The translations under genes and the position numbers were made by a program. Positions 47,637-60,741 of a DNA stretch of 64,000 nt are shown one piece after another. Positions within the stretch are counted from its first letter, which is position 1. Each line of letters starts with the position of its first letter. The notes below the pieces were generated by a model. It had not been told where the DNA came from, did not search any database, and worked only from the letters and a program-made list of their open reading frames with translations. The stretch covers positions 124,001 through 188,000 of the forward strand of contig WGNB01000001.1 of NCBI GenBank assembly GCA_016124795.1. The letters are read 5' to 3'. The DNA is from Rhodopseudomonas sp. Lineage in GTDB: Bacteria > Pseudomonadota > Alphaproteobacteria > Rhizobiales > Xanthobacteraceae.

Positions 47637-47812
47637 ACCGGCCCAGCCGGCCGCGCTTTATCGACGCTTTGGCGCGTTAAGTCCCTAAGCCGGATAACGA
47701 ATCCGTAGCACCGGGCGGCCGGAACCGCTGGCCCCAATCTTCAAGTCATCGGCCGGCGGGCCTGTGCCACTGCCGATGCGGCATTGGCCGCAGGAGCAAC
47801 CTCGTTTCAGGT

Positions 47813-47851
47813 TGATTGACAGCATACTGTCAGACAGTATACGGTCAATCA
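47813..47851. promoter_or_regulatory. Promoter of the 3-hydroxybenzoate genes with nested dyad operator
   Basis: Inner dyad ATACTGTC-A-GACAGTAT (47824-47840) is flanked by a second perfect pair TGATTGAC (47813-47820) and GTCAATCA (47844-47851). Plus-strand TTGACA (47816-47821) and TATACG (47838-47843) are 16 bases apart, so the inner dyad fills the promoter spacer. This is a clear repressor site, probably for the MarR protein encoded three genes downstream. The 277-base gap 47637-47913 holds nothing else recognisable. Confidence 0.8.
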
Positions 47852-47913
47852 GGGTAGGCACTCAAAGCCACCATTTCCGCCATAGCCATGGCGGCCAAAA
47901 CGGGGAGGACACT

Positions 47914-49122
47914 ATGCCGATGACAAAGTCATCCGCCATCGTCGCCGGCGGCGGAATCGGTGGGCTCGCCACCGCACTGGGTCTTGCGAACAAAGGGTGC
48001 CGGGTCACGGTGCTCGAACAGGCCGACCGCTTCGGCGAGATCGGCGCCGGAATCCAGATTGGGCCGAATGCCTTTCATGCGATGGACTACCTCGGCATCG
48101 GCGACGCCGGTCGCGCCAAGGCGGTCTATATCGATGCCCTGATCATGATGGACGGAATGAGCGGCGAGCAGATTTTCCGCGGCCCGCTCGACGAACCTTT
48201 CCGTCGGGAATTCGGCAATCCCTATGCCGTCATTCATCGCGCCGACCTGCACGGCGTTTTCCTTGACGCCTGCCGCGCTCACCCCGCGATAACGCTGGTC
48301 AACAAGGAGCGCGTCGTTGGCTTCGAGAACACCGCGTCGGGCGCCAAGGTGCGAACCGCCGCCGGCAATACATACGAGGCCGATGCCGTGATCGGCGCGG
48401 ATGGCGTGCGCTCGATGGTGCGTGAGCAAATCACCGGCGGCGATCCGATCCGCTATTCCGGGCACGTCGCTTATCGCGCGGTGCTCCAGCTCGATCAGAT
48501 GCCGGAAGACCTGCGCTGGAACGCGGCGACGTTGTGGGCCGGCCCGAAGTGCCACATGGTGCATTATCCCTTGCAGGGCTGGCGCACCTTCAATCTGGTG
48601 GCGACCTTCGTGACCGACGACAAGAACGTCGGCAGCAATGAGCCCGGCACCCGCGAAGAAGTGCTCGGCCGCTTTGGCAATATCGTGCCGAAGGCCCGCA
48701 AGCTGCTCGAGGTGCCGACCGAATGGCGCCGCTGGGTGCTGGCCGACCGCGATCCGATTCCCAATTGGGTCGATGGCCGGGTGGCTCTGCTCGGCGATGC
48801 CGCACATCCGACCTATCAATATTTCGCGCAGGGCGCCTGCATGGCGATGGAAGACGCCGTTTGCCTAGCCGACAAGTTCGAGCGTTTCGGCGGCGATTTC
48901 GGCCCGGCCTTCCAGGCTTATCAGCAGGAGCGCATTCCGCGCGCCTATCGCGTGGTCTACGGCTCGCGCGAACTGGGCCGCATCTATCACGCCGATGGCG
49001 TCGAGCGGCTGGTGCGCAACGCCTGGCTCAAGTCGAAGACGCCGGAAGAGTTTTACGCCGGCGTGCGCTGGCTCTATGGCGGCAACGGTCTGGTCGGCGC
49101 CGGTCAGAAGGCTGCGGCCTGA
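47914..49122 (+). CDS. 3-Hydroxybenzoate 6-hydroxylase
   Basis: NADH- and FAD-dependent group A monooxygenase that converts 3-hydroxybenzoate to gentisate. It is 402 aa from the ATG at 47914 (GGGGAGG upstream). GxGxxG is at 12-17 (AGGGIGGLAT), the DG motif IGADGVRS at ~160-167 and the GD motif LLGDAAHP at ~292-299. His214, Tyr218 and Gln302 sit where the Rhodococcus 3HB6H structure, as I recall it, has active-site His213, Tyr217 and Gln301. The gentisate dioxygenase gene follows, strongly supporting the assignment. Salicylate 1-hydroxylase is the main alternative. Confidence 0.85.
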   Translation: MPMTKSSAIVAGGGIGGLATALGLANKGCRVTVLEQADRFGEIGAGIQIGPNAFHAMDYLGIGDAGRAKAVYIDALIMMDGMSGEQIFRGPLDEPFRREFGNPYAVIHRADLHGVFLDACRAHPAITLVNKERVVGFENTASGAKVRTAAGNTYEADAVIGADGVRSMVREQITGGDPIRYSGHVAYRAVLQLDQMPEDLRWNAATLWAGPKCHMVHYPLQGWRTFNLVATFVTDDKNVGSNEPGTREEVLGRFGNIVPKARKLLEVPTEWRRWVLADRDPIPNWVDGRVALLGDAAHPTYQYFAQGACMAMEDAVCLADKFERFGGDFGPAFQAYQQERIPRAYRVVYGSRELGRIYHADGVERLVRNAWLKSKTPEEFYAGVRWLYGGNGLVGAGQKAAA

Positions 49123-49170
49123 TTCAATTCGGACGATGCGCGTGAACCAATGGCGATGGAGGGAAGGCCT

Positions 49171-50214
49171 ATGAGCAGTCTTGGAACCTTGAGCGAATTG
49201 CCGCGTCAATATCTCGACAATCTCACCGGCGGCAATCTGGTGCCGCTGTGGCCGAGCTTGCGCAAAGCGTTGCCGCACGGTGCGCCGTTGCGCCGAACCC
49301 AGCCGGTGCTGTGGCGCTATGCCGATATTCGTCCGCTGTTGTTGCAGGCGGGCGAACTGACGCCGATCGAAAAGGCCGAGCGTCGCGTGCTCGTGCTCGC
49401 CAATCCGGGGCTGGGTCTCGACAACATGCAGGCGACGCCATCGATCTATATCGGCATGCAGTTGATCCTGCCGCGCGAGACCGCGCCCAATCACCGCCAT
49501 AGTCCGAGTGCCGTGCGTTTCGTGGTCGAGGGGCAGGGCGGTTTCACCATCGTCGACGGCGAGAAGTTGCCGATGCAGCGCGGCGACCTGATCCTGACGC
49601 CGGCCTTGCTCTGGCATGAGCATTGCCATGAAGGCGACGGACCGGTGATCTGGCTCGATGCTCTCGACCTGCCGACTGTGTTCGCGCAGGAAGCTTCTTA
49701 CGCGCTCGAAGGCGAGCCGCAGCACGTGCGCAATCAGCCCGACAATTCGCAGACGCTGTACCGGCGCGCTGGTCTGGTGCCGTATCGTTCGCTCGGTGGG
49801 CCGCGTTCCCAGTATCCCTTGCTGCGTTATCCGTGGCAGGAAGTGCGCGAAGCGCTGATGACGCTGGCGCCGGTCACCGAAGCGGGCGAAATTGTGCAAC
49901 TGGCCTATGTTAATCCGGAAACCGGTCTGGAATGTCTGCCGGTGCTCGGCTTCTCCGCGATCATGCTGCGGCCGGGTGAAACCGCTTTGCCGCCGCGCCG
50001 TTCGGCGTCGGCCGTGCTGCATGTCGTCGAAGGCGAGGTCGAAGCCGAAGTCGACGGCGTGCCGCTGGTCGCGGGAGAAAACGACACCATGGCGGTGCCG
50101 ACTCACGCGCATCTGAAAATCGCCAACCGTTCGTCCCGCGCGCCGGCTTTCCTGTTCCAGGTCGACGACGCGCCGATGCAGCGCAAGCTCGGCTTCTACG
50201 AAACCTTCAACTGA
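49171..50214 (+). CDS. Gentisate 1,2-dioxygenase
   Basis: Bicupin Fe(II) enzyme that opens gentisate to maleylpyruvate, 347 aa from the ATG at 49171 with GGAGGGAAGG upstream. Iron ligands are His108 and His110 ([15 protein letters not shown]) and probably His149, 39 residues later as in the E. coli enzyme (104/106/145). The typical DALDLP and second cupin [15 protein letters not shown] are present. It is in an operon with the hydroxylase. Maleylpyruvate isomerase/hydrolase genes are not in the window. Confidence 0.95.
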
Positions 50215-54454: not shown

Positions 54455-55957
54455 ATGACCAGCGCCGCTTTAGCTGCTCCGACCGTCCACACCGGCAAGA
54501 CCGCCGAAGTCGCCCATTTCATCGATGGCCGCGCCGTTTCGTCGGCCAAGCCGTCATTCGAAAATCGCAATCCGGCGACCGGCGAGGTCGTCAGTTTGGT
54601 GCACGAGGCCGACGCGGCTTTGGTCGACGATGCGGTGCAGGCGGCCCGCCGCGCTCTGAAAGGTCCTTGGGGCAAGATGAGCGATCAGGAACGCTCGGCG
54701 ATTTTGCGCAAGGTGGCCGACGGCATCACGCGCCGCTTCGATGAATTCGTGCGAGCCGAAGTGCTCGATACCGGCAAGCCGGTCAGCCTGGCCTCGCATC
54801 TCGACATTCCGCGCGGCGCCGCGAACTTCAATGTCTTTGCCGATCAGATCCTGACGGCCTCGACCGAGACGTTTCGCATGGCCACGCCGGATGGCGCCGG
54901 TGCGCTCAATTATGCGATCCGCGTGCCGCGCGGTGTGATCGCGGTGGTGTGCCCGTGGAATCTGCCGCTGTTGCTGATGACCTGGAAGGTCGCACCGGCG
55001 CTGGCCTGCGGCAACACGGTCGTCGTCAAGCCGTCGGAGGAAACCCCGACCACGGCGGCCTTGCTCGGTCAGATCATGAACGAAGCCGGCATTCCGCCCG
55101 GCGTCTATAATGTCGTGCAGGGTCTCGGGCCGAACAGCACCGGCGAATTCCTCACTCGCCATCCCGAGGTCGACGGCATCACCTTCACCGGCGAGACGCG
55201 GACCGGCGAGGCGATCATGGCGGCGGCGTCCAAGGGCGTGCGGCCGGTGTCGCTCGAACTGGGCGGCAAGAACGCGGCGATGGTGTTTGCCGATTGCGAT
55301 CTCGACAAGGCGATCGAAGGCACGATGCGATCGGTGTTCGCCAATTGCGGGCAGGTCTGTCTCGGCACCGAGCGGGTCTACGTCGAACGGCCGATCTTCG
55401 ATTCTTTCGTCGAGCGGCTGAAGTCGGCCGCTCAGGGCCTGAAGATGGGCGATCCCTTCGACAAGACCACCAATCTCGGTCCGCTGATCAGCGCCGAGCA
55501 TCGCAACAAGGTGATGTCCTATTACGAACGCGCCAAGGCGGAAGGCGCGCGGATCGTGCTTGGCGGCGGCATCCCGAAGCTCGCCGCGCCGCAGAGCGGC
55601 GGCTATTTCATCGAGCCGACGATCTGGACCGGACTGCCGGAGACTTCAACGGTGGTGCGCGAGGAAATTTTTGGACCCTGCTGCCACATCACGCCGTTCG
55701 ACAGCGAGGATGAAGTCGCCGACCGGGTGAACGACAGCCCTTATGGCCTGGCGACGGCGATCTGGACCAACAACCTGACCCGGGCGCACCGGCTGTCGGC
55801 ACGGATCGATGTCGGCATCGTCTGGGTCAATTCCTGGTTCCTGCGCGACCTGCGCACGCCTTTCGGCGGCTCCAAGCAATCGGGCGTCGGCCGGGAAGGC
55901 GGCGTTCACTCGATGGAGTTCTACACCGAGCTGCGCAACGTCTGCGTCAAGCTTTGA
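54455..55957 (+). CDS. 2-Hydroxymuconic semialdehyde dehydrogenase-like aldehyde dehydrogenase
   Basis: NAD-dependent aldehyde dehydrogenase of 500 aa. Catalytic Cys302 is in NCGQVCLGTERVYVERP, general base Glu268 in LELGGKN and Asn169 in CPWNLPL. The stretches FTGETRTGEAIM and QVCLGTERVYVERPIFDSFV resemble DmpC/XylG of meta-cleavage pathways, as I recall them. AGAGAGAGGAAC precedes the ATG. No extradiol dioxygenase or hydrolase of a meta pathway is near, so it may serve another semialdehyde. Confidence 0.85.
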   Translation: MTSAALAAPTVHTGKTAEVAHFIDGRAVSSAKPSFENRNPATGEVVSLVHEADAALVDDAVQAARRALKGPWGKMSDQERSAILRKVADGITRRFDEFVRAEVLDTGKPVSLASHLDIPRGAANFNVFADQILTASTETFRMATPDGAGALNYAIRVPRGVIAVVCPWNLPLLLMTWKVAPALACGNTVVVKPSEETPTTAALLGQIMNEAGIPPGVYNVVQGLGPNSTGEFLTRHPEVDGITFTGETRTGEAIMAAASKGVRPVSLELGGKNAAMVFADCDLDKAIEGTMRSVFANCGQVCLGTERVYVERPIFDSFVERLKSAAQGLKMGDPFDKTTNLGPLISAEHRNKVMSYYERAKAEGARIVLGGGIPKLAAPQSGGYFIEPTIWTGLPETSTVVREEIFGPCCHITPFDSEDEVADRVNDSPYGLATAIWTNNLTRAHRLSARIDVGIVWVNSWFLRDLRTPFGGSKQSGVGREGGVHSMEFYTELRNVCVKL

Positions 55958-56080: not shown

Positions 56081-56106
56081 CGTTACGTTACGTTACGTAA
56101 CGTTAC
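56081..56106. repeat. CGTTA tandem repeat with a 14-bp palindrome at a gene end
   Basis: Short tandem run of CGTTA units (cgttacgttacgttacgtaa, continuing cgttac) forming the perfect palindrome ACGTTACGTAACGT. It overlaps the stop codon of the minus-strand hydrolase gene and lies between convergent genes. It may be a protein-binding site or a slippage-prone microsatellite. Confidence 0.6.
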
Positions 56107-56720
56107 TTGGCGTTGGACGCCGAGGATTGGTGCGACGGCATGGGGCGCTGTGCCGGCGCGGGCCGCGGCGCGCGGCTGATCCTCTGAATTTCCGCGATGA
56201 CCGTGGCGTGCAGCCGTTCGATCTTCTCGACGTTGAAATGATTGATCCCGTCATGGCCGATCAGGTTGACGTTCTTGATCGTCCCGCGAAAGCCGGGGCC
56301 CTTCGTGATATTGTGTTCGCCGAAATTGAAATTGAGGATATGGGCGACGTTGGTCGGGGCGACTCGCCCATCGTCCGGCCCGAAAGTCACCAGCAGCGCG
56401 ACTTTCGCACCCTTCGTCTTCAGCAGTTCGGCCATCGAGACCGCGGCGTCGGCGCCAAGCGAATGGCCGATGATAATGATCGCGCCCTTGTCGGCCTTTT
56501 GAGCCTTGGCGGCTTTATCCGCAAGCTCTTCATATTCAATGTGATTATGGACTTCCGGCCGGTAGCCGCGCTTGGCCAGTTCATCGGACAGGGTGTCGAG
56601 CCCGGTCGAGAAGACGTTGGCAAGCCCCTTCAGGAGATAGATGTGGGTTGCGGCCTGAGCATTCTGCGAGAAAATCGTCAGCGCGGCGAGAGCGGTAGCG
56701 AACAAAAGGCCAAAACGCAC
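56103..56720 (-). CDS. Exported alpha/beta-hydrolase-like protein of unknown function
   Basis: 205 aa from a GTG at 56720, chosen because GGAG lies 7 bases upstream and it puts the signal sequence (LLFATALAALTIFSQNAQA) at the N-terminus. The nucleophile-elbow motif is GHSLGAD after IIIIG; a possible catalytic His is in NHFNVEK. It resembles small thioesterase/lipase-like domains, but no family is recognised. The C-terminus is Pro/Ser-rich. It is an isolated gene, convergent with the aldehyde dehydrogenase. Confidence 0.65.
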   Translation of the reverse strand: MRFGLLFATALAALTIFSQNAQAATHIYLLKGLANVFSTGLDTLSDELAKRGYRPEVHNHIEYEELADKAAKAQKADKGAIIIIGHSLGADAAVSMAELLKTKGAKVALLVTFGPDDGRVAPTNVAHILNFNFGEHNITKGPGFRGTIKNVNLIGHDGINHFNVEKIERLHATVIAEIQRISRAPRPAPAQRPMPSHQSSASNAK

Positions 56721-56755
56721 AATACGGCTCCATATCCCGAGGTGGCACACGAATA

Positions 56756-56768
56756 GTGGACAGTCCAC
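56756..56768. promoter_or_regulatory. 13-bp palindrome upstream of the hydrolase-like gene
   Basis: GTGGAC-A-GTCCAC lies 36-48 bases before the GTG start at 56720, within the 222-base gap 56721-56942 between divergent genes. Its position fits an operator or promoter spacer; the gap contains no gene that I can support. Confidence 0.45.
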
Positions 56769-57738: not shown

Positions 57739-59358
57739 ATGGATATTGTTCTTCTTCAGACCGGGGCCCTGCCCACAGTTGACGGCGGTTTTTCCGATGG
57801 CGCCGCTGCGACCGACGATGCGGGCCCAATCCTTGGGCCGACATCGTTCTCGAACCTTGCCGCGGCGTTTGCCGCTGTCGCCATGCGCCGCGCCGGGCAC
57901 TCGGCGCTGGTTACTAAAGACGCCACGATTTCGTATGGGTTGCTGCTGCAGGCCGCGAACCGCGTGTGCCGGTACCTGATCGACCGTCCGGGCTATCGGC
58001 CGGGCGCTCTGGTGACGCTGCAATTGTCGAATTCTCTGGAATATCTGGCGGCGTTTTATGGCACGCTGTTGGCCGATTGCGTTGTTGTGCCGTTGCCGGT
58101 GACGCTGGAAGCCTCGCGCCGGCTGGCGATCTATCAACAGTGCCGGCCGGATGTCTTGATCAGCCGGCCGTCCGATTTCGATCCGACCGGGTATGATGGC
58201 GAGCCGGCTTCCGTGAGCCTGTTCGGCGGTGAGGCAGCCGATGCATCGATGCCGCACCCGCGTCGTGCCGCCGGCGATCTCGCGATGCTGCTTTACACCT
58301 CCGGTTCAACCGGCGCGCCGAAAGGCGTCATGCTGAGCCATCGCAACCTGCTCGCCAATGCCGGTTCGATCCTGCAAGTGTTGCCGGTTAATTCCGACGA
58401 TCGGACGCTGGTTGTGCTGCCGTTCTGCCATGCGCTGGGTAATTCCATTCTTCAAACCCATATCCTGTCGGGTGCGACGCTTCTGGTGAAAGGCGCGCTG
58501 ACTTTCCCGTCCTCGATTGTCGAGGCCTTGCGGGAGCTGCGCGCGACAAGCTTTTCAGCCGTGCCGGAAGTCTACGGGATGCTGTTGAAATATGGTCGGC
58601 TTGGTGAGAGTTCCCTGCCGGCGCTTCGCTACATGGCGGTCGCGGGCGGCGCGCTGCGGCCGGATCTGGCGGCCGACGTTGCCAGGCGGATCGCGCCGGC
58701 ATCGTTCTATGTCATGTATGGACAATCCGAGGCGACGTCGCGGCTGGCGATCCTTGCTCCGGACGACCTCGGCCGGCGCAGCGGCTCGATCGGGAAGGCC
58801 ATTCCCGGCGTCGAACTTTGCATCATGGATGACGATAACCGCGAATTGCCGGTCGGCGCCGTCGGCATGTTGTGCGCGCGGGGCGATAACGTCATGGCCG
58901 GCTATTGGGACGATCCGGCTGCCACCGCCGATGTCCTCGACGCCGATGGCTGGCTGCGAACCGGCGACCTCGCCCGACGGGACGCGGACGGCTATTTCTA
59001 TATTCAGGGGCGCGCCAACCTGCTGATCAAAGTGCAAGGTCAGCGGATGCATCCGGCGGAAATCGAAAGCGTGGTCGAGGCCGGCTTTCCACACGTCCGG
59101 GCGGTCGCTGTTCCGGTGTCCCGGAACGACGAAGTCCGGTTTATGCTTTTCCTCGCCAGCCAGGATAACAGCCCGGTCGACGTGCCGGCGATCCGCGCGG
59201 CTTGCCAAAAGGAGCTTCCTTCCTTTAAGCAACCTGTGAATTTTGAAGTTCTGGACCGCCTGCCTTTGACGCCTTCCTATAAGGTCGACCGCGCGGCGCT
59301 GGGCCGGCTTGCGGGGCCGAAGCCGGATGCCACAGCGACCTTGAGACCAACCGGCTGA
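57739..59358 (+). CDS. Adenylate-forming acyl/aryl ligase of the carrier-protein cassette
   Basis: 539 aa from the ATG at 57739 (MDIVLLQTG); the frame is open another 25 codons upstream. Motif A3 is LLYTSGSTGAPKGVMLSHRNL, A5 MYGQSEATSR, A7 GWLRTGD, A8 YFYIQGRANLLIKVQGQRMHPAEIE and A10 TPSYKVDR with the catalytic Lys. It is a fatty/aryl-acyl-AMP ligase or CoA ligase. Because a free-standing carrier protein follows, it probably loads an acyl or aryl group on that carrier rather than on CoA. 191 bases separate it from the carrier gene, with no gene in between. Confidence 0.88.
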   Translation: MDIVLLQTGALPTVDGGFSDGAAATDDAGPILGPTSFSNLAAAFAAVAMRRAGHSALVTKDATISYGLLLQAANRVCRYLIDRPGYRPGALVTLQLSNSLEYLAAFYGTLLADCVVVPLPVTLEASRRLAIYQQCRPDVLISRPSDFDPTGYDGEPASVSLFGGEAADASMPHPRRAAGDLAMLLYTSGSTGAPKGVMLSHRNLLANAGSILQVLPVNSDDRTLVVLPFCHALGNSILQTHILSGATLLVKGALTFPSSIVEALRELRATSFSAVPEVYGMLLKYGRLGESSLPALRYMAVAGGALRPDLAADVARRIAPASFYVMYGQSEATSRLAILAPDDLGRRSGSIGKAIPGVELCIMDDDNRELPVGAVGMLCARGDNVMAGYWDDPAATADVLDADGWLRTGDLARRDADGYFYIQGRANLLIKVQGQRMHPAEIESVVEAGFPHVRAVAVPVSRNDEVRFMLFLASQDNSPVDVPAIRAACQKELPSFKQPVNFEVLDRLPLTPSYKVDRAALGRLAGPKPDATATLRPTG

Positions 59359-59549
59359 CACCGCCGTCCGACCCATGAGCCGAAATGCCACCACATGATT
59401 TTTCGGATGCTTTTGACGGGCTGGCCGTGACTTGTGCCACGATGAGCGCCGATGAATGAACATGCTATCGATGACGTTCTGAATTCGAAACTTCTCCGCC
59501 GACGTGGCGATATTGCAGCCCAGTCCTTAGTCCAGGTGATGTAGCGTTG

Positions 59550-59822
59550 ATGATGTTCGATCGAGAAAAGGCATTAGACGAATTGCTGCGGTTCGTTCGT
59601 GCGCACGATTTGTCGCGCGCCAACGTTACGGCGCAAACGGACCTCATCGAGAGCGGTCTTATGGACTCCCTGTTGCTGGTTGACCTGATCGTGCATCTCG
59701 AAGAGGTCTACGGCGTCCGCTTCGAGAGCGAGCACATCGATCCGACCAACTTCAACAATATTGCGGCTATCGTCGATCTGGTCGCGCAGCGGATGGCGGC
59801 GGCCGAGCCGCGGCTGGGTTGA
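59550..59822 (+). CDS. Acyl carrier protein-like (DltC/ACP family)
   Basis: 90 aa starting at one of two adjacent ATGs (59550 or 59553), with AGGTGAT upstream. The phosphopantetheine site is Ser40 in ESGLMDSLLLVDLIVHLEE (DSL motif). The C-terminal helix region ESEHIDPTNFNNIAAIVDLV resembles D-alanyl and other stand-alone carrier proteins more than fatty-acid-synthesis AcpP. It lies 191 bases after the ligase and 46 before the acyltransferase-like gene. Confidence 0.88.
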   Translation: MMFDREKALDELLRFVRAHDLSRANVTAQTDLIESGLMDSLLLVDLIVHLEEVYGVRFESEHIDPTNFNNIAAIVDLVAQRMAAAEPRLG

Positions 59823-59868
59823 TCATGCGCGACCGGGCGCCGAGCGTGCAGAAGACAGGCAGCCCGTC

Positions 59869-60741
59869 ATGAAGTGGCCGTTGCGTAGCCGCGCCGTCCC
59901 GAACGCGGACATTCCGCTTTATAACCGCTTCTATCTCCACGCATCGCGGGCAAGCCATGCCGATGCAACGATCGTCTGGGGCACCGAGATCGACGCCGAT
60001 GCCTTGCAGGCGTTTCTGCGTGAACGGAACCGGCAAAGCCGGGTCGTCATTACGCCGGCGCATGCCTTGATCCGCGCGACGGCGCTGGCCCTCGTGCAAT
60101 TCCCGGCGCTGAACGTGCGCGTGGTCGGCCGAAAGATCTATCCGTTCCGCGACGTCAGCGTGCGGATCGCGTTTTTTCATCGCCGCAACAAGGAAATCGA
60201 TTTGTTGCTGGTGCAGAATGCGGATCAGAAGAACCTGCAACAGATCGCTCAGAATGTCTGGGATCGGCTGCTTCAGGCGGCGCGCGGCGAGGGCGGTCGC
60301 GACCGCGACCTGGCGCGGCTGCGCCGGCTTCCCGGTTTCTGGTTCCGCCAGTTGATGCGGTTCCATGGCTTTCTGGATCGTCATTTTCGGCTGCCGATCT
60401 TAAGTCGGCTGGATGCGACGCGTGCCGGCGGCGCTTTGGTCAACGATCTGTCGTTTCCCGGCGCGCCGCCGATGCGCAGTTACAAGGCGTCGCGGTTTCC
60501 CGATGAAAGCGACACCTTCAACCTGACCTTGGGGCCGGTCGAGCAGAAAGTCGTGGCCAAGGGGGATGGCTTTGCCTCGGTCGGCATCATGCCGTTGTTT
60601 GTGCGCGCCGATCATCGCCTGATCGATGCCTATCAGGTTGGCCGATTGCTCGATCTGGTGCGTGATTTGCTGAACCATCCCGAGCGTCTTGAAGAGTCGC
60701 TTGCGAATGTGGCGACGCCGGGTCAGGCAAAGCCCGACTGA
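59869..60741 (+). CDS. 2-Oxoacid dehydrogenase E2-type acyltransferase domain, without lipoyl domain
   Basis: 290 aa from the ATG at 59869. The protein is only the CAT-like catalytic domain of E2 acyltransferases. The active motif HRxxD is ADHRLIDAYQVGRLL (His249, Asp253) and the sequence VAKGDGFASVGIMPLFVRADHRL is typical of the trimer active-site strand. There is no lipoyl or E1/E3-binding domain, and the usual Gly after the Asp is replaced by Ala. With a ligase and carrier upstream it may transfer the carrier-bound acyl group to an acceptor, in the way CAT-fold enzymes use a thioester donor. Product unknown. Confidence 0.8.
   Translation: MKWPLRSRAVPNADIPLYNRFYLHASRASHADATIVWGTEIDADALQAFLRERNRQSRVVITPAHALIRATALALVQFPALNVRVVGRKIYPFRDVSVRIAFFHRRNKEIDLLLVQNADQKNLQQIAQNVWDRLLQAARGEGGRDRDLARLRRLPGFWFRQLMRFHGFLDRHFRLPILSRLDATRAGGALVNDLSFPGAPPMRSYKASRFPDESDTFNLTLGPVEQKVVAKGDGFASVGIMPLFVRADHRLIDAYQVGRLLDLVRDLLNHPERLEESLANVATPGQAKPD

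What the first reader, a model, noticed from the sequence alone, without database searches (positions are those of the whole stretch)
57739..60741. Ligase / free carrier protein / lipoyl-less E2 acyltransferase cassette
Seen: an adenylate-forming ligase with all core motifs, a 90-aa carrier with a DSL phosphopantetheine site, and a 290-aa stand-alone E2 catalytic domain with HRxxD but no lipoyl domain, in order on one strand. Known: CAT-fold enzymes use CoA or lipoyl thioesters; carrier proteins loaded by AMP ligases feed synthases or acyltransferases. Inference: the ligase loads an acyl, aryl or amino acid group on the carrier and the E2-like protein transfers it from the pantetheine thioester to an unknown acceptor. 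This would be an E2 domain repurposed to accept an ACP donor; I know of no characterised pathway with this triad.
Basis: partly seen in the sequence, partly recalled or inferred. Interest (0 to 1): 0.85.

Follow-up and report, generated by a model that had tools for sequence, protein, structure and literature searches.

The report
Conserved ligase–carrier–E2-like acyltransferase cassette
This bacterium carries a small, conserved but uncharacterised set of enzyme genes in which a relative of a central-metabolism enzyme core seems to have become a stand-alone acyl-transferring enzyme that works with its own activating enzyme and carrier protein.

Summary
In detail: an acyl/aryl-type AMP ligase (57739-59358), a discrete carrier protein (59550-59822) and a lipoyl-less E2-type catalytic domain (59869-60741) lie in order on one strand. 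The trio is not chance: I found the E2-like protein in 10 genomes of two genera of one family, and all 10 carry ligase, carrier and E2-like in the same order. The real unit is larger: an ICMT-type membrane methyltransferase is adjacent in 10 of 10 and an α/β-hydrolase-like gene in 9 of 10. The E2-like protein forms its own clade; the genome has three ordinary E2s besides. His and Asp of DHRxxD are invariant, but Asn stands where E2s have the active-site Ser/Thr. Best reading: the ligase loads a non-amino acid on the carrier and the E2-like enzyme transfers it to an acceptor that the methyltransferase also modifies. Transfer from the carrier is inferred, not shown. A lipoyl-less E2 beside a discrete carrier is not unprecedented: tetronate clusters (AbmA4/Agg4) have one, acting as acetyltransferase. 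So: new variant of a known kind, with substrate, acceptor and product unknown. The AlphaFold job failed, so no structural support is claimed.

The parts
56103..56768 (-). alpha/beta-hydrolase-like protein with an N-terminal signal-like segment (221 aa; signal judged by reading)
   Evidence: ORF; weak Pfam Thioesterase and Lipase_3 matches below cut-off; relative beside the cassette in 9 of 10 loci, cut by a contig end in L036 and L155
56943..57527 (+). ICMT/PEMT-type membrane methyltransferase (194 aa from ATG 56943)
   Evidence: PF04140 E 9.9e-14, PF04191 E 1.8e-9; RHPMY and EE invariant in 7 of 7 aligned; adjacent in 10 of 10 loci
57739..59358 (+). class I adenylate-forming ligase (539 aa); A10 Lys codon 59281-59283
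   Evidence: PF00501 E 7.7e-73; TSGS(T/M)G, PFCH, YGQSEA, TGD, GRANLL and A10 Lys in 10 of 10
59550..59822 (+). discrete acyl carrier protein (90 aa)
   Evidence: PF00550 E 9.3e-7; DSL motif in 10 of 10
59667..59669 (+). Ser40 of the carrier, phosphopantetheine attachment site (DSL)
   Evidence: sequence; invariant in 10 of 10
59869..60741 (+). stand-alone lipoyl-less E2-type acyltransferase (290 aa)
   Evidence: PF00198 E 7.8e-14; profile-profile match to lipoyl E2 cores, probability 97.7, E 1.5e-12; own clade, support 100/100
60442..60444 (+). Asn192 of VNDLS, aligned with the active-site Ser/Thr of E2 cores
   Evidence: hhalign; VNDLS invariant in 10 of 10; the MAFFT alignment sets it one column off
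60613..60627 (+). His249 to Asp253 of DHRLIDA, the E2 catalytic motif
   Evidence: His and Asp invariant in 10 of 10

Best explanation
A conserved five-gene acyl-modification cassette. The AMP ligase activates a carboxylic acid (fatty or aryl, not an alpha-amino acid) and loads it on the pantetheine arm of the dedicated carrier. The E2-like enzyme, an E2-type catalytic core without lipoyl arm and partner subunits, transfers the acyl group from the carrier to an alcohol, amine or thiol acceptor with its HisxxxAsp motif. The ICMT-type membrane methyltransferase methylates the same lipophilic product or precursor, and the hydrolase, probably exported, trims or turns over the product. Shown: gene order, conservation, motif integrity, distinctness from the sampled lipoyl E2s. 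Inferred: that the five proteins share one pathway, the direction of acyl transfer, and the lipophilic nature of the product.
For: Ligase-carrier-E2 in the same order and strand in 10 of 10 loci; methyltransferase adjacent in 10 of 10 although it lies upstream on the same strand in one genus and downstream on the opposite strand in the other; hydrolase in 9 of 10. Flanking genes differ between the window, L033/L036 (alike), L122, L155 and L156-L159. ACP DSL, ligase motifs with A10 Lys, and E2 RADHRLxDA in 10 of 10. E2-like clade 100/100 on a branch of 2.3, no lipoyl domain by Pfam in the window protein and two orthologues. Own genome has three further PF00198 proteins in open frames of 442-454 aa; a lipoyl motif was read in the two whose sequence I fetched (L110, L114). 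Ligase-carrier pairs serving other enzymes occur in relatives (L117 and L118, L099).
Against: No biochemical or structural proof of carrier-E2 contact; the AlphaFold job gave mean pLDDT 33.5 and says nothing. The active-site Ser/Thr of E2s is replaced by Asn, which could alter or weaken acyl transfer. The methyltransferase subfamily mostly occurs without an E2-like neighbour: it is in 26 of 249 order genomes, and only 2 of these (own genome and G539) show cassette or E2-like genes in the fetched flanks of about 1.5 kb; G839 and G902 hold both kinds of gene but not side by side. So it is not dedicated to this chemistry. The known relative with a carrier neighbour, AbmA4, adds an acetyl group to a tetronate rather than clearly taking its donor from the carrier.
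Confidence: 0.5

Rival explanations
1. The carrier holds the acceptor or a building block, not the donor: the ligase loads an acid that becomes part of the product, and the E2-like enzyme acetylates (or acylates) that product from acetyl-CoA or another CoA ester, as the tetronate enzymes AbmA4/Agg4 acetylate theirs (CoA as their donor is recalled).
For: AbmA4 (280 aa, E2-type, beside a discrete ACP and an alpha/beta hydrolase): the abmA4 mutant accumulates a compound with the mass of the hydroxy-tetronate, the abmA5 mutant one with the mass of the acetyl-tetronate (PMC5819245 section 14; table passage). A similar layout, ACP - E2-like - FrsA-like hydrolase, is in Streptomyces L119. The window cassette also has an alpha/beta-hydrolase-like gene.
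Against: The window protein is not close to the Streptomyces protein (profile probability 11.6 against 97.7 for lipoyl E2s; a single sequence was the template, so this is weak); its hydrolase does not match FrsA; no glyceryl-ACP synthase, ketosynthase or PKS was seen on reading the flanks.
Confidence: 0.25
2. The ligase-carrier pair belongs to a polysaccharide or exosortase-A-like type (TIGR03098 kin) and the cassette decorates a surface polymer.
For: Second-best NCBIfam match of the ligase is TIGR03098 (263 bits); the only plasmid relative at 1e-60, on Paludibaculum pPfer1, is an ACP-ligase pair in an exopolysaccharide/exosortase-type cluster; in the same genus G016 and G025 have ACP, ligase and PLP decarboxylase in a row, the G016 ligase scoring 583 bits to TIGR03098. 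About 7 kb from the cassette in L122 stands a protein that reads like a glycan-cluster ATP-grasp (by reading only).
Against: 263 bits is far below the 592-bit cut-off; on reading the gene lists no PLP decarboxylase, exosortase or glycosyltransferase cluster stood beside the 10 cassettes (no family search was made on most flanking genes).
Confidence: 0.15
3. The E2-like protein is a spare or trans-acting E2 core of a 2-oxoacid dehydrogenase complex, receiving lipoyl domains from elsewhere.
For: Best sequence and profile matches are lipoyl E2 cores, and in the unrooted tree it joins them rather than the other stand-alone proteins (split 96/90).
Against: No E1 or E3 genes seen in the flanks of the 10 loci; three other E2s elsewhere in the genome; Asn for Ser/Thr; ligase and carrier are always the neighbours.
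Confidence: 0.03
4. The neighbours are unrelated genes travelling together, or a decaying remnant in the window.
For: Patchy distribution: 3 of 43 and 7 of 29 genomes in two genera. In the window a 191-base gap separates ligase and carrier, whereas they overlap in L033.
Against: Same order in 10 of 10 loci, low pN against pS, no stop in the window genes.
Confidence: 0.04

Closest known systems
Tetronate-pathway E2-type acetyltransferases (AbmA4, Agg4, QmnD3)
   Same: Stand-alone, about 280 aa, E2-type core, encoded beside a discrete ACP and an alpha/beta hydrolase (AbmA4 in PMC5819245; similar layout in L119)
   Different: There the carrier is loaded with a glyceryl group by a glyceryl-ACP synthase and the enzyme acetylates a hydroxymethyl tetronate; here an AMP ligase stands beside the carrier, a methyltransferase is adjacent, and the protein lies apart from the one candidate relative tested (L119)
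Lipoyl E2 subunits of 2-oxoacid dehydrogenase complexes
   Same: Catalytic core, DHRxxD motif, full-length profile match
   Different: No lipoyl or subunit-binding domain, no E1/E3 neighbours seen, an insert of about 35-40 residues before the VNDLS strand, Asn for Ser/Thr, separate clade
Rhizobial stand-alone 'E2 subunit' family of about 250-266 aa (E2b here)
   Same: Stand-alone, lipoyl-less, a similar but shorter insert, next to the same kind of ICMT gene in 6 of 15 E2b loci inspected (L067, L068, L081-L083, L098)
   Different: No ligase or carrier beside it in L067 and L068 or on the annotated plasmid stretches, keeps the Ser, separate clade (100/99), followed by an SDR in the Rhizobiaceae loci
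Exosortase-A-associated ligase/ACP/decarboxylase cluster (TIGR03098, TIGR03099)
   Same: AMP ligase plus discrete ACP
   Different: Ligase far below the family cut-off; decarboxylase and exosortase not seen; E2-like and ICMT present
D-alanylation system DltA/DltC
   Same: AMP ligase next to a small discrete carrier
   Different: Carrier scores 25.7 bits against a 68-bit DltC cut-off, no DltB/DltD seen, ligase lacks the amino-acid Asp

Membership tests
2-oxoacid dehydrogenase complex E2 | PF00198 catalytic core with DHRxxD | tested here: met
2-oxoacid dehydrogenase complex E2 | lipoyl domain and peripheral-subunit-binding domain | tested here: not met
   neither matched in the window protein or in two orthologues, P0004 and P0014
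2-oxoacid dehydrogenase complex E2 | active-site Ser/Thr | tested here: not met
   Asn in VNDLS in 10 of 10; placement by profile alignment
2-oxoacid dehydrogenase complex E2 | E1/E3 genes alongside | tested here: not met
   none on reading the gene lists of the window end and nine relatives; L155 was read over 8 kb only
Tetronate E2-type acetyltransferase (AbmA4/Agg4) | stand-alone E2 core beside a discrete ACP and alpha/beta hydrolase | tested here: met
   window layout; the hydrolase matches Pfam models only below cut-off
Tetronate E2-type acetyltransferase (AbmA4/Agg4) | glyceryl-ACP synthase and ketoacyl-ACP synthase partners, PKS nearby | tested here: not met
   not seen on reading the flanks
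Tetronate E2-type acetyltransferase (AbmA4/Agg4) | sequence membership | tested here: inconclusive
   one candidate member only (L119, not proven tetronate); probability 11.6, E 0.0026
TIGR03098 exosortase-A ligase | score above 592.35 bits | tested here: not met
   263.2 bits
DltC carrier | score above curated cut-off | tested here: not met
   25.7 against 68 bits
Class I adenylate-forming enzymes | PF00501 with core motifs and A10 Lys | tested here: met
Carrier-dependent CAT-fold acyltransferase (PapA5-like in mode of action) | acyl donor is a carrier-bound thioester | not testable with these tools
   needs an in vitro assay

The most novel reading that the evidence does not exclude
The first E2-type acyltransferase that takes its acyl group from a phosphopantetheine carrier loaded by an AMP ligase, with Asn in place of the E2 active-site Ser/Thr, working with an ICMT-type membrane methyltransferase and an exported hydrolase to build an unknown methylated lipid or aryl ester in one family of bacteria (one member record is named Hyphomicrobiales).
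Probability: 0.4. Interest if true: 0.7.

Novelty: new variant of a known kind. Interest (0 to 1): 0.52.

Why it matters
E2 cores are among the best-studied acyltransferases and are known mainly with lipoyl donors. A conserved cassette that couples such a core to an ATP-loaded carrier would show how a central-metabolism catalyst is recruited for specialised chemistry, and it gives a compact five-gene set whose product can be sought by expression in a laboratory host. The wider family of stand-alone E2 cores in Rhizobiales, found here in part next to the same kind of methyltransferase, suggests a larger unexplored class of acyltransferases now annotated as dehydrogenase subunits.

Tried and rejected
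Rejected: dehydrogenase-complex membership (three other E2s in the genome, no lipoyl arm, no E1/E3 neighbours seen). Rejected: the methyltransferase as an exclusive partner of E2-like genes; of 26 order genomes with it only 2 had E2-like or cassette genes within the fetched flanks, and in the methyltransferase tree the 9 partner rows are not a clean clade (two other rows join them by a long branch; one origin in 50% of bootstrap trees). Checked and ordinary: five short-frame PF00198-like places from the class search (L093-L097): four are cut or short E2s, three of them beside lpdA- and lipA-type genes and one (L095) near an E1-type gene (names by reading), the fifth gave no E2 match, and none has ligase, carrier or methyltransferase of this cassette. 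Led nowhere: AlphaFold with a two-row alignment (mean pLDDT 33.5), so no fold search was run; plasmid tblastn with the window protein at 1e-5 (no match) and with P0014 at E 10 (115 records, best around 1e-3, the 40 listed places partial and where named mostly ordinary E2s); paper searches with no paper, and 109, 128, 129 whose listings (seen only as listings) showed nothing on this cassette; searches were seen as listings and are not used; PMC6100094 was seen as two passages. The one genome-contig scan found only the locus of G024. The OlsH/OlsI paper (PMC12493201, passages) was looked at because the carrier weakly matches model NF052616; its pathway uses a GH3-like enzyme.

Limits: in the class and phylum searches at most 5 or 6 candidate places per genome were scored and in the family search up to 16, so misses are possible. 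Rows dropped: of 13 places meant to give lipoyl E2s, 10 were used (L107 and L108 gave a wrong frame, L113 none); L061 gave no methyltransferase row. Of 12 order genomes with E2b, 10 were fetched with wide flanks. The lipoyl E2s sampled are of few types, so an origin of the E2-like clade from another E2 type is not excluded. ACP divergence values that involve L122 are void because that stretch is partly masked. Branches of the E2-like clades are long and their joins unsure.
Full report
What is there. No protein reaches the cut-off of an NCBIfam model shown: ligase 263 bits to TIGR03098 against 592 (best 25 of 107 families shown); carrier 25.7 bits to DltC against 68; E2-like 34 bits to a pyruvate dehydrogenase E2 model against 445.

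Conservation. The E2-like protein was found in 3 of 43 genomes of the window's genus, in a second genus of the same family through a family sample (2 of 149 genomes, own included), and then in 7 of 29 genomes of that second genus. In a class sample of 385 and a phylum sample of 398 genomes only the window itself scored as an orthologue; the other listed matches reach at most 34 bits and fall mostly in frames of about 390 aa or more, as expected of ordinary E2s (at most 5 or 6 candidates per genome were scored). Five of the short-frame places were checked: four are E2s cut by contig ends or short frames beside lpdA, lipA or E1-type genes (names by reading), one gave no match, and none has the cassette. 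No plasmid record matched at 1e-5. One relative is a Hyphomicrobiales MAG record. I inspected all 10 loci: ligase, carrier and E2-like are in that order on one strand in 10 of 10; the ICMT-type methyltransferase is adjacent in 10 of 10, upstream on the same strand in the first genus and downstream on the opposite strand in the second; the hydrolase-like gene is beside it in 9 of 10, cut by a contig end in L036 and L155 and not found in L122 (window; others). The surroundings differ: aromatic catabolism and an SsuA-like substrate-binding protein in the window, Gfo/Idh oxidoreductase (Pfam), cation efflux and glnE-like genes (by reading) in L033 and L036, iron-uptake-type genes in L122 (by reading), others in L155-L160. 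So the five genes form a small unit that keeps together through rearrangement.

Integrity. Among the 10 sets, the carrier DSL serine, the ligase motifs TSGS(T/M)G, PFCH, YGQSEA, TGD, GRANLL and the A10 lysine, and the E2 stretch RADHRLxDA are conserved. In four sequences the E2 gene shows pN 0.18-0.25 against pS 0.54-0.82. In the alignment of the ligase to the first LgrA adenylation domain the FDGS aspartate, which by recalled knowledge binds the amino group of amino acid substrates, has no counterpart; the ligase has PFCHALG there. I therefore expect a fatty or aryl acid.

The E2-like protein. Its profile (four sequences) matches lipoyl E2 cores over the full length (hhalign probability 97.7, E 1.5e-12), the rhizobial stand-alone family less well (80.9, E 1.2e-5) and the single Streptomyces protein weakly (11.6, E 0.0026). 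In a tree with 10 lipoyl E2s, 15 rhizobial stand-alone E2-like proteins (E2b) and one Streptomyces protein the 10 orthologues form one clade (100/100) on a branch of 2.3 changes per site; the lipoyl E2s lie on one side of a branch (93/89, not starred), and the split that sets E2b plus Streptomyces against lipoyl E2s plus our clade has 96/90. The tree is unrooted and branches are long, so the origin of the clade is open. It has an insert of about 35-40 residues before the strand that carries the active-site Ser/Thr in E2s; a shorter similar insert is in E2b and in the Streptomyces protein and absent from the lipoyl E2s (alignment). In that strand the profile alignment puts Asn on the Ser/Thr (VNDLS, invariant in 10 of 10); that this Ser/Thr helps catalysis in E2s is recalled. 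The genome also encodes three other PF00198 proteins in open frames of 442-454 aa on other contigs; a lipoyl motif was read in the two that I fetched. The AlphaFold job with two sequences failed (mean pLDDT 33.5).

Relatives of the parts. In two genomes of the genus (L067, L068), on three Sinorhizobium, Ensifer and Rhizobium replicons looked at (L081-L083) and in G539 (L098), an ICMT gene of the same kind stands next to a stand-alone E2b gene, with no ligase or carrier of this cassette seen beside it. Of 15 E2b loci inspected, 6 have the methyltransferase and 9 do not. E2b occurs in 12 of 249 order genomes and on 30 plasmid records covered to at least 80%. Conversely, 26 of 249 order genomes hold the methyltransferase subfamily, but only the window and G539 show cassette or E2-like genes within the fetched flanks; in several others a hydrolase of the RGLANVFS type and a protein of about 400 aa stand beside it (by reading; Pfam of two of these proteins gave only sub-cut-off hydrolase matches in one and none in the other). 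In the methyltransferase tree the partners of both E2 kinds group together, but two other rows fall among them and one origin is seen in only 50% of bootstrap trees. The methyltransferase and hydrolase thus look like a broader module with which the ligase-carrier-E2 trio is combined here.

Mechanism. Most likely the ligase adenylates a carboxylic acid and loads it on the carrier; the E2-like protein transfers it to an acceptor; the methyltransferase, of a family that by recalled knowledge methylates lipophilic substrates at membranes (ICMT; SrsB and BpsB with alkylresorcinols and alkylpyrones), acts on the same product; the hydrolase trims or degrades it. Gene grouping and motif integrity are shown; the chemistry is inferred. 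The main rival is that the carrier holds a building block or acceptor and the E2-like enzyme adds acetyl or acyl from CoA, by analogy with tetronate formation. There, the abmA4 mutant accumulates a compound with the mass of the hydroxy-tetronate and the abmA5 mutant one with the mass of the acetyl-tetronate (PMC5819245; passages, section 14). A Streptomyces plasmid locus found here has a similar layout: PKS, ACP of 75 aa, E2-like of 276 aa and FrsA-like hydrolase; I take it as tetronate-like but did not prove it.

What is known. Ligase-carrier pairs of an exosortase-A-like type occur in the same genus (G016 and G025; in G016 the ligase scores 583 bits to TIGR03098 and the decarboxylase 436 bits to TIGR03099, both under their cut-offs of 592 and 478) and in a Paludibaculum exopolysaccharide-type cluster, but the window ligase is not a member by score. 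I found no description of this cassette in paper searches of an open-access library; subscription papers are mostly not held there. Verdict: a real, conserved, uncharacterised cassette; a new variant of the known kind 'stand-alone E2-type acyltransferase with a discrete carrier'.

Noticed in passing
L081:6403-8667, L082:6403-8658, L083:6397-8661: Sinorhizobium/Ensifer/Rhizobium gene group: ICMT-type methyltransferase, stand-alone E2-like protein (annotated '2-oxo acid dehydrogenase subunit E2' or hypothetical) and SDR, downstream of an L,D-transpeptidase; uncharacterised as far as I saw.
   Followed up: partly
L081:6403-6990: In S. meliloti Ak57 pSymB the methyltransferase matches in two pieces and is not in the listed gene table; it may be broken there while the relatives in L082 and L083 are intact.
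   Followed up: no
L119:3177-9787: Streptomyces sp. NBC_01435 plasmid, unannotated: PKS, ACP, stand-alone E2-like, FrsA-like hydrolase; resembles a tetronate-type set.
   Followed up: partly
L117:6520-10476, L118:6673-10629: Same-genus genomes G016 and G025 carry a GNAT-like protein (by reading), ACP, ligase and PLP decarboxylase in a row (TIGR03098/TIGR03099-like by score in G016), with no exosortase seen in the fetched stretch.
   Followed up: partly
L125, L126, L130-L135, L138: A protein of about 400 aa of no clear Pfam family (in L126 and L135, the two tested) sits next to the ICMT-type methyltransferase in these nine loci.
   Followed up: partly
window 47764-50214 and 54455-55957: Aromatic catabolism genes: 3-hydroxybenzoate 6-monooxygenase model (564.7 bits, above cut-off), gentisate dioxygenase-like (below cut-off) and 2-hydroxymuconic semialdehyde dehydrogenase (851 bits, above cut-off).
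   Followed up: partly
window 59359-59549: 191-base gap between ligase and carrier in the window, whereas the two genes overlap by a few bases in L033; cause unknown.
   Followed up: no
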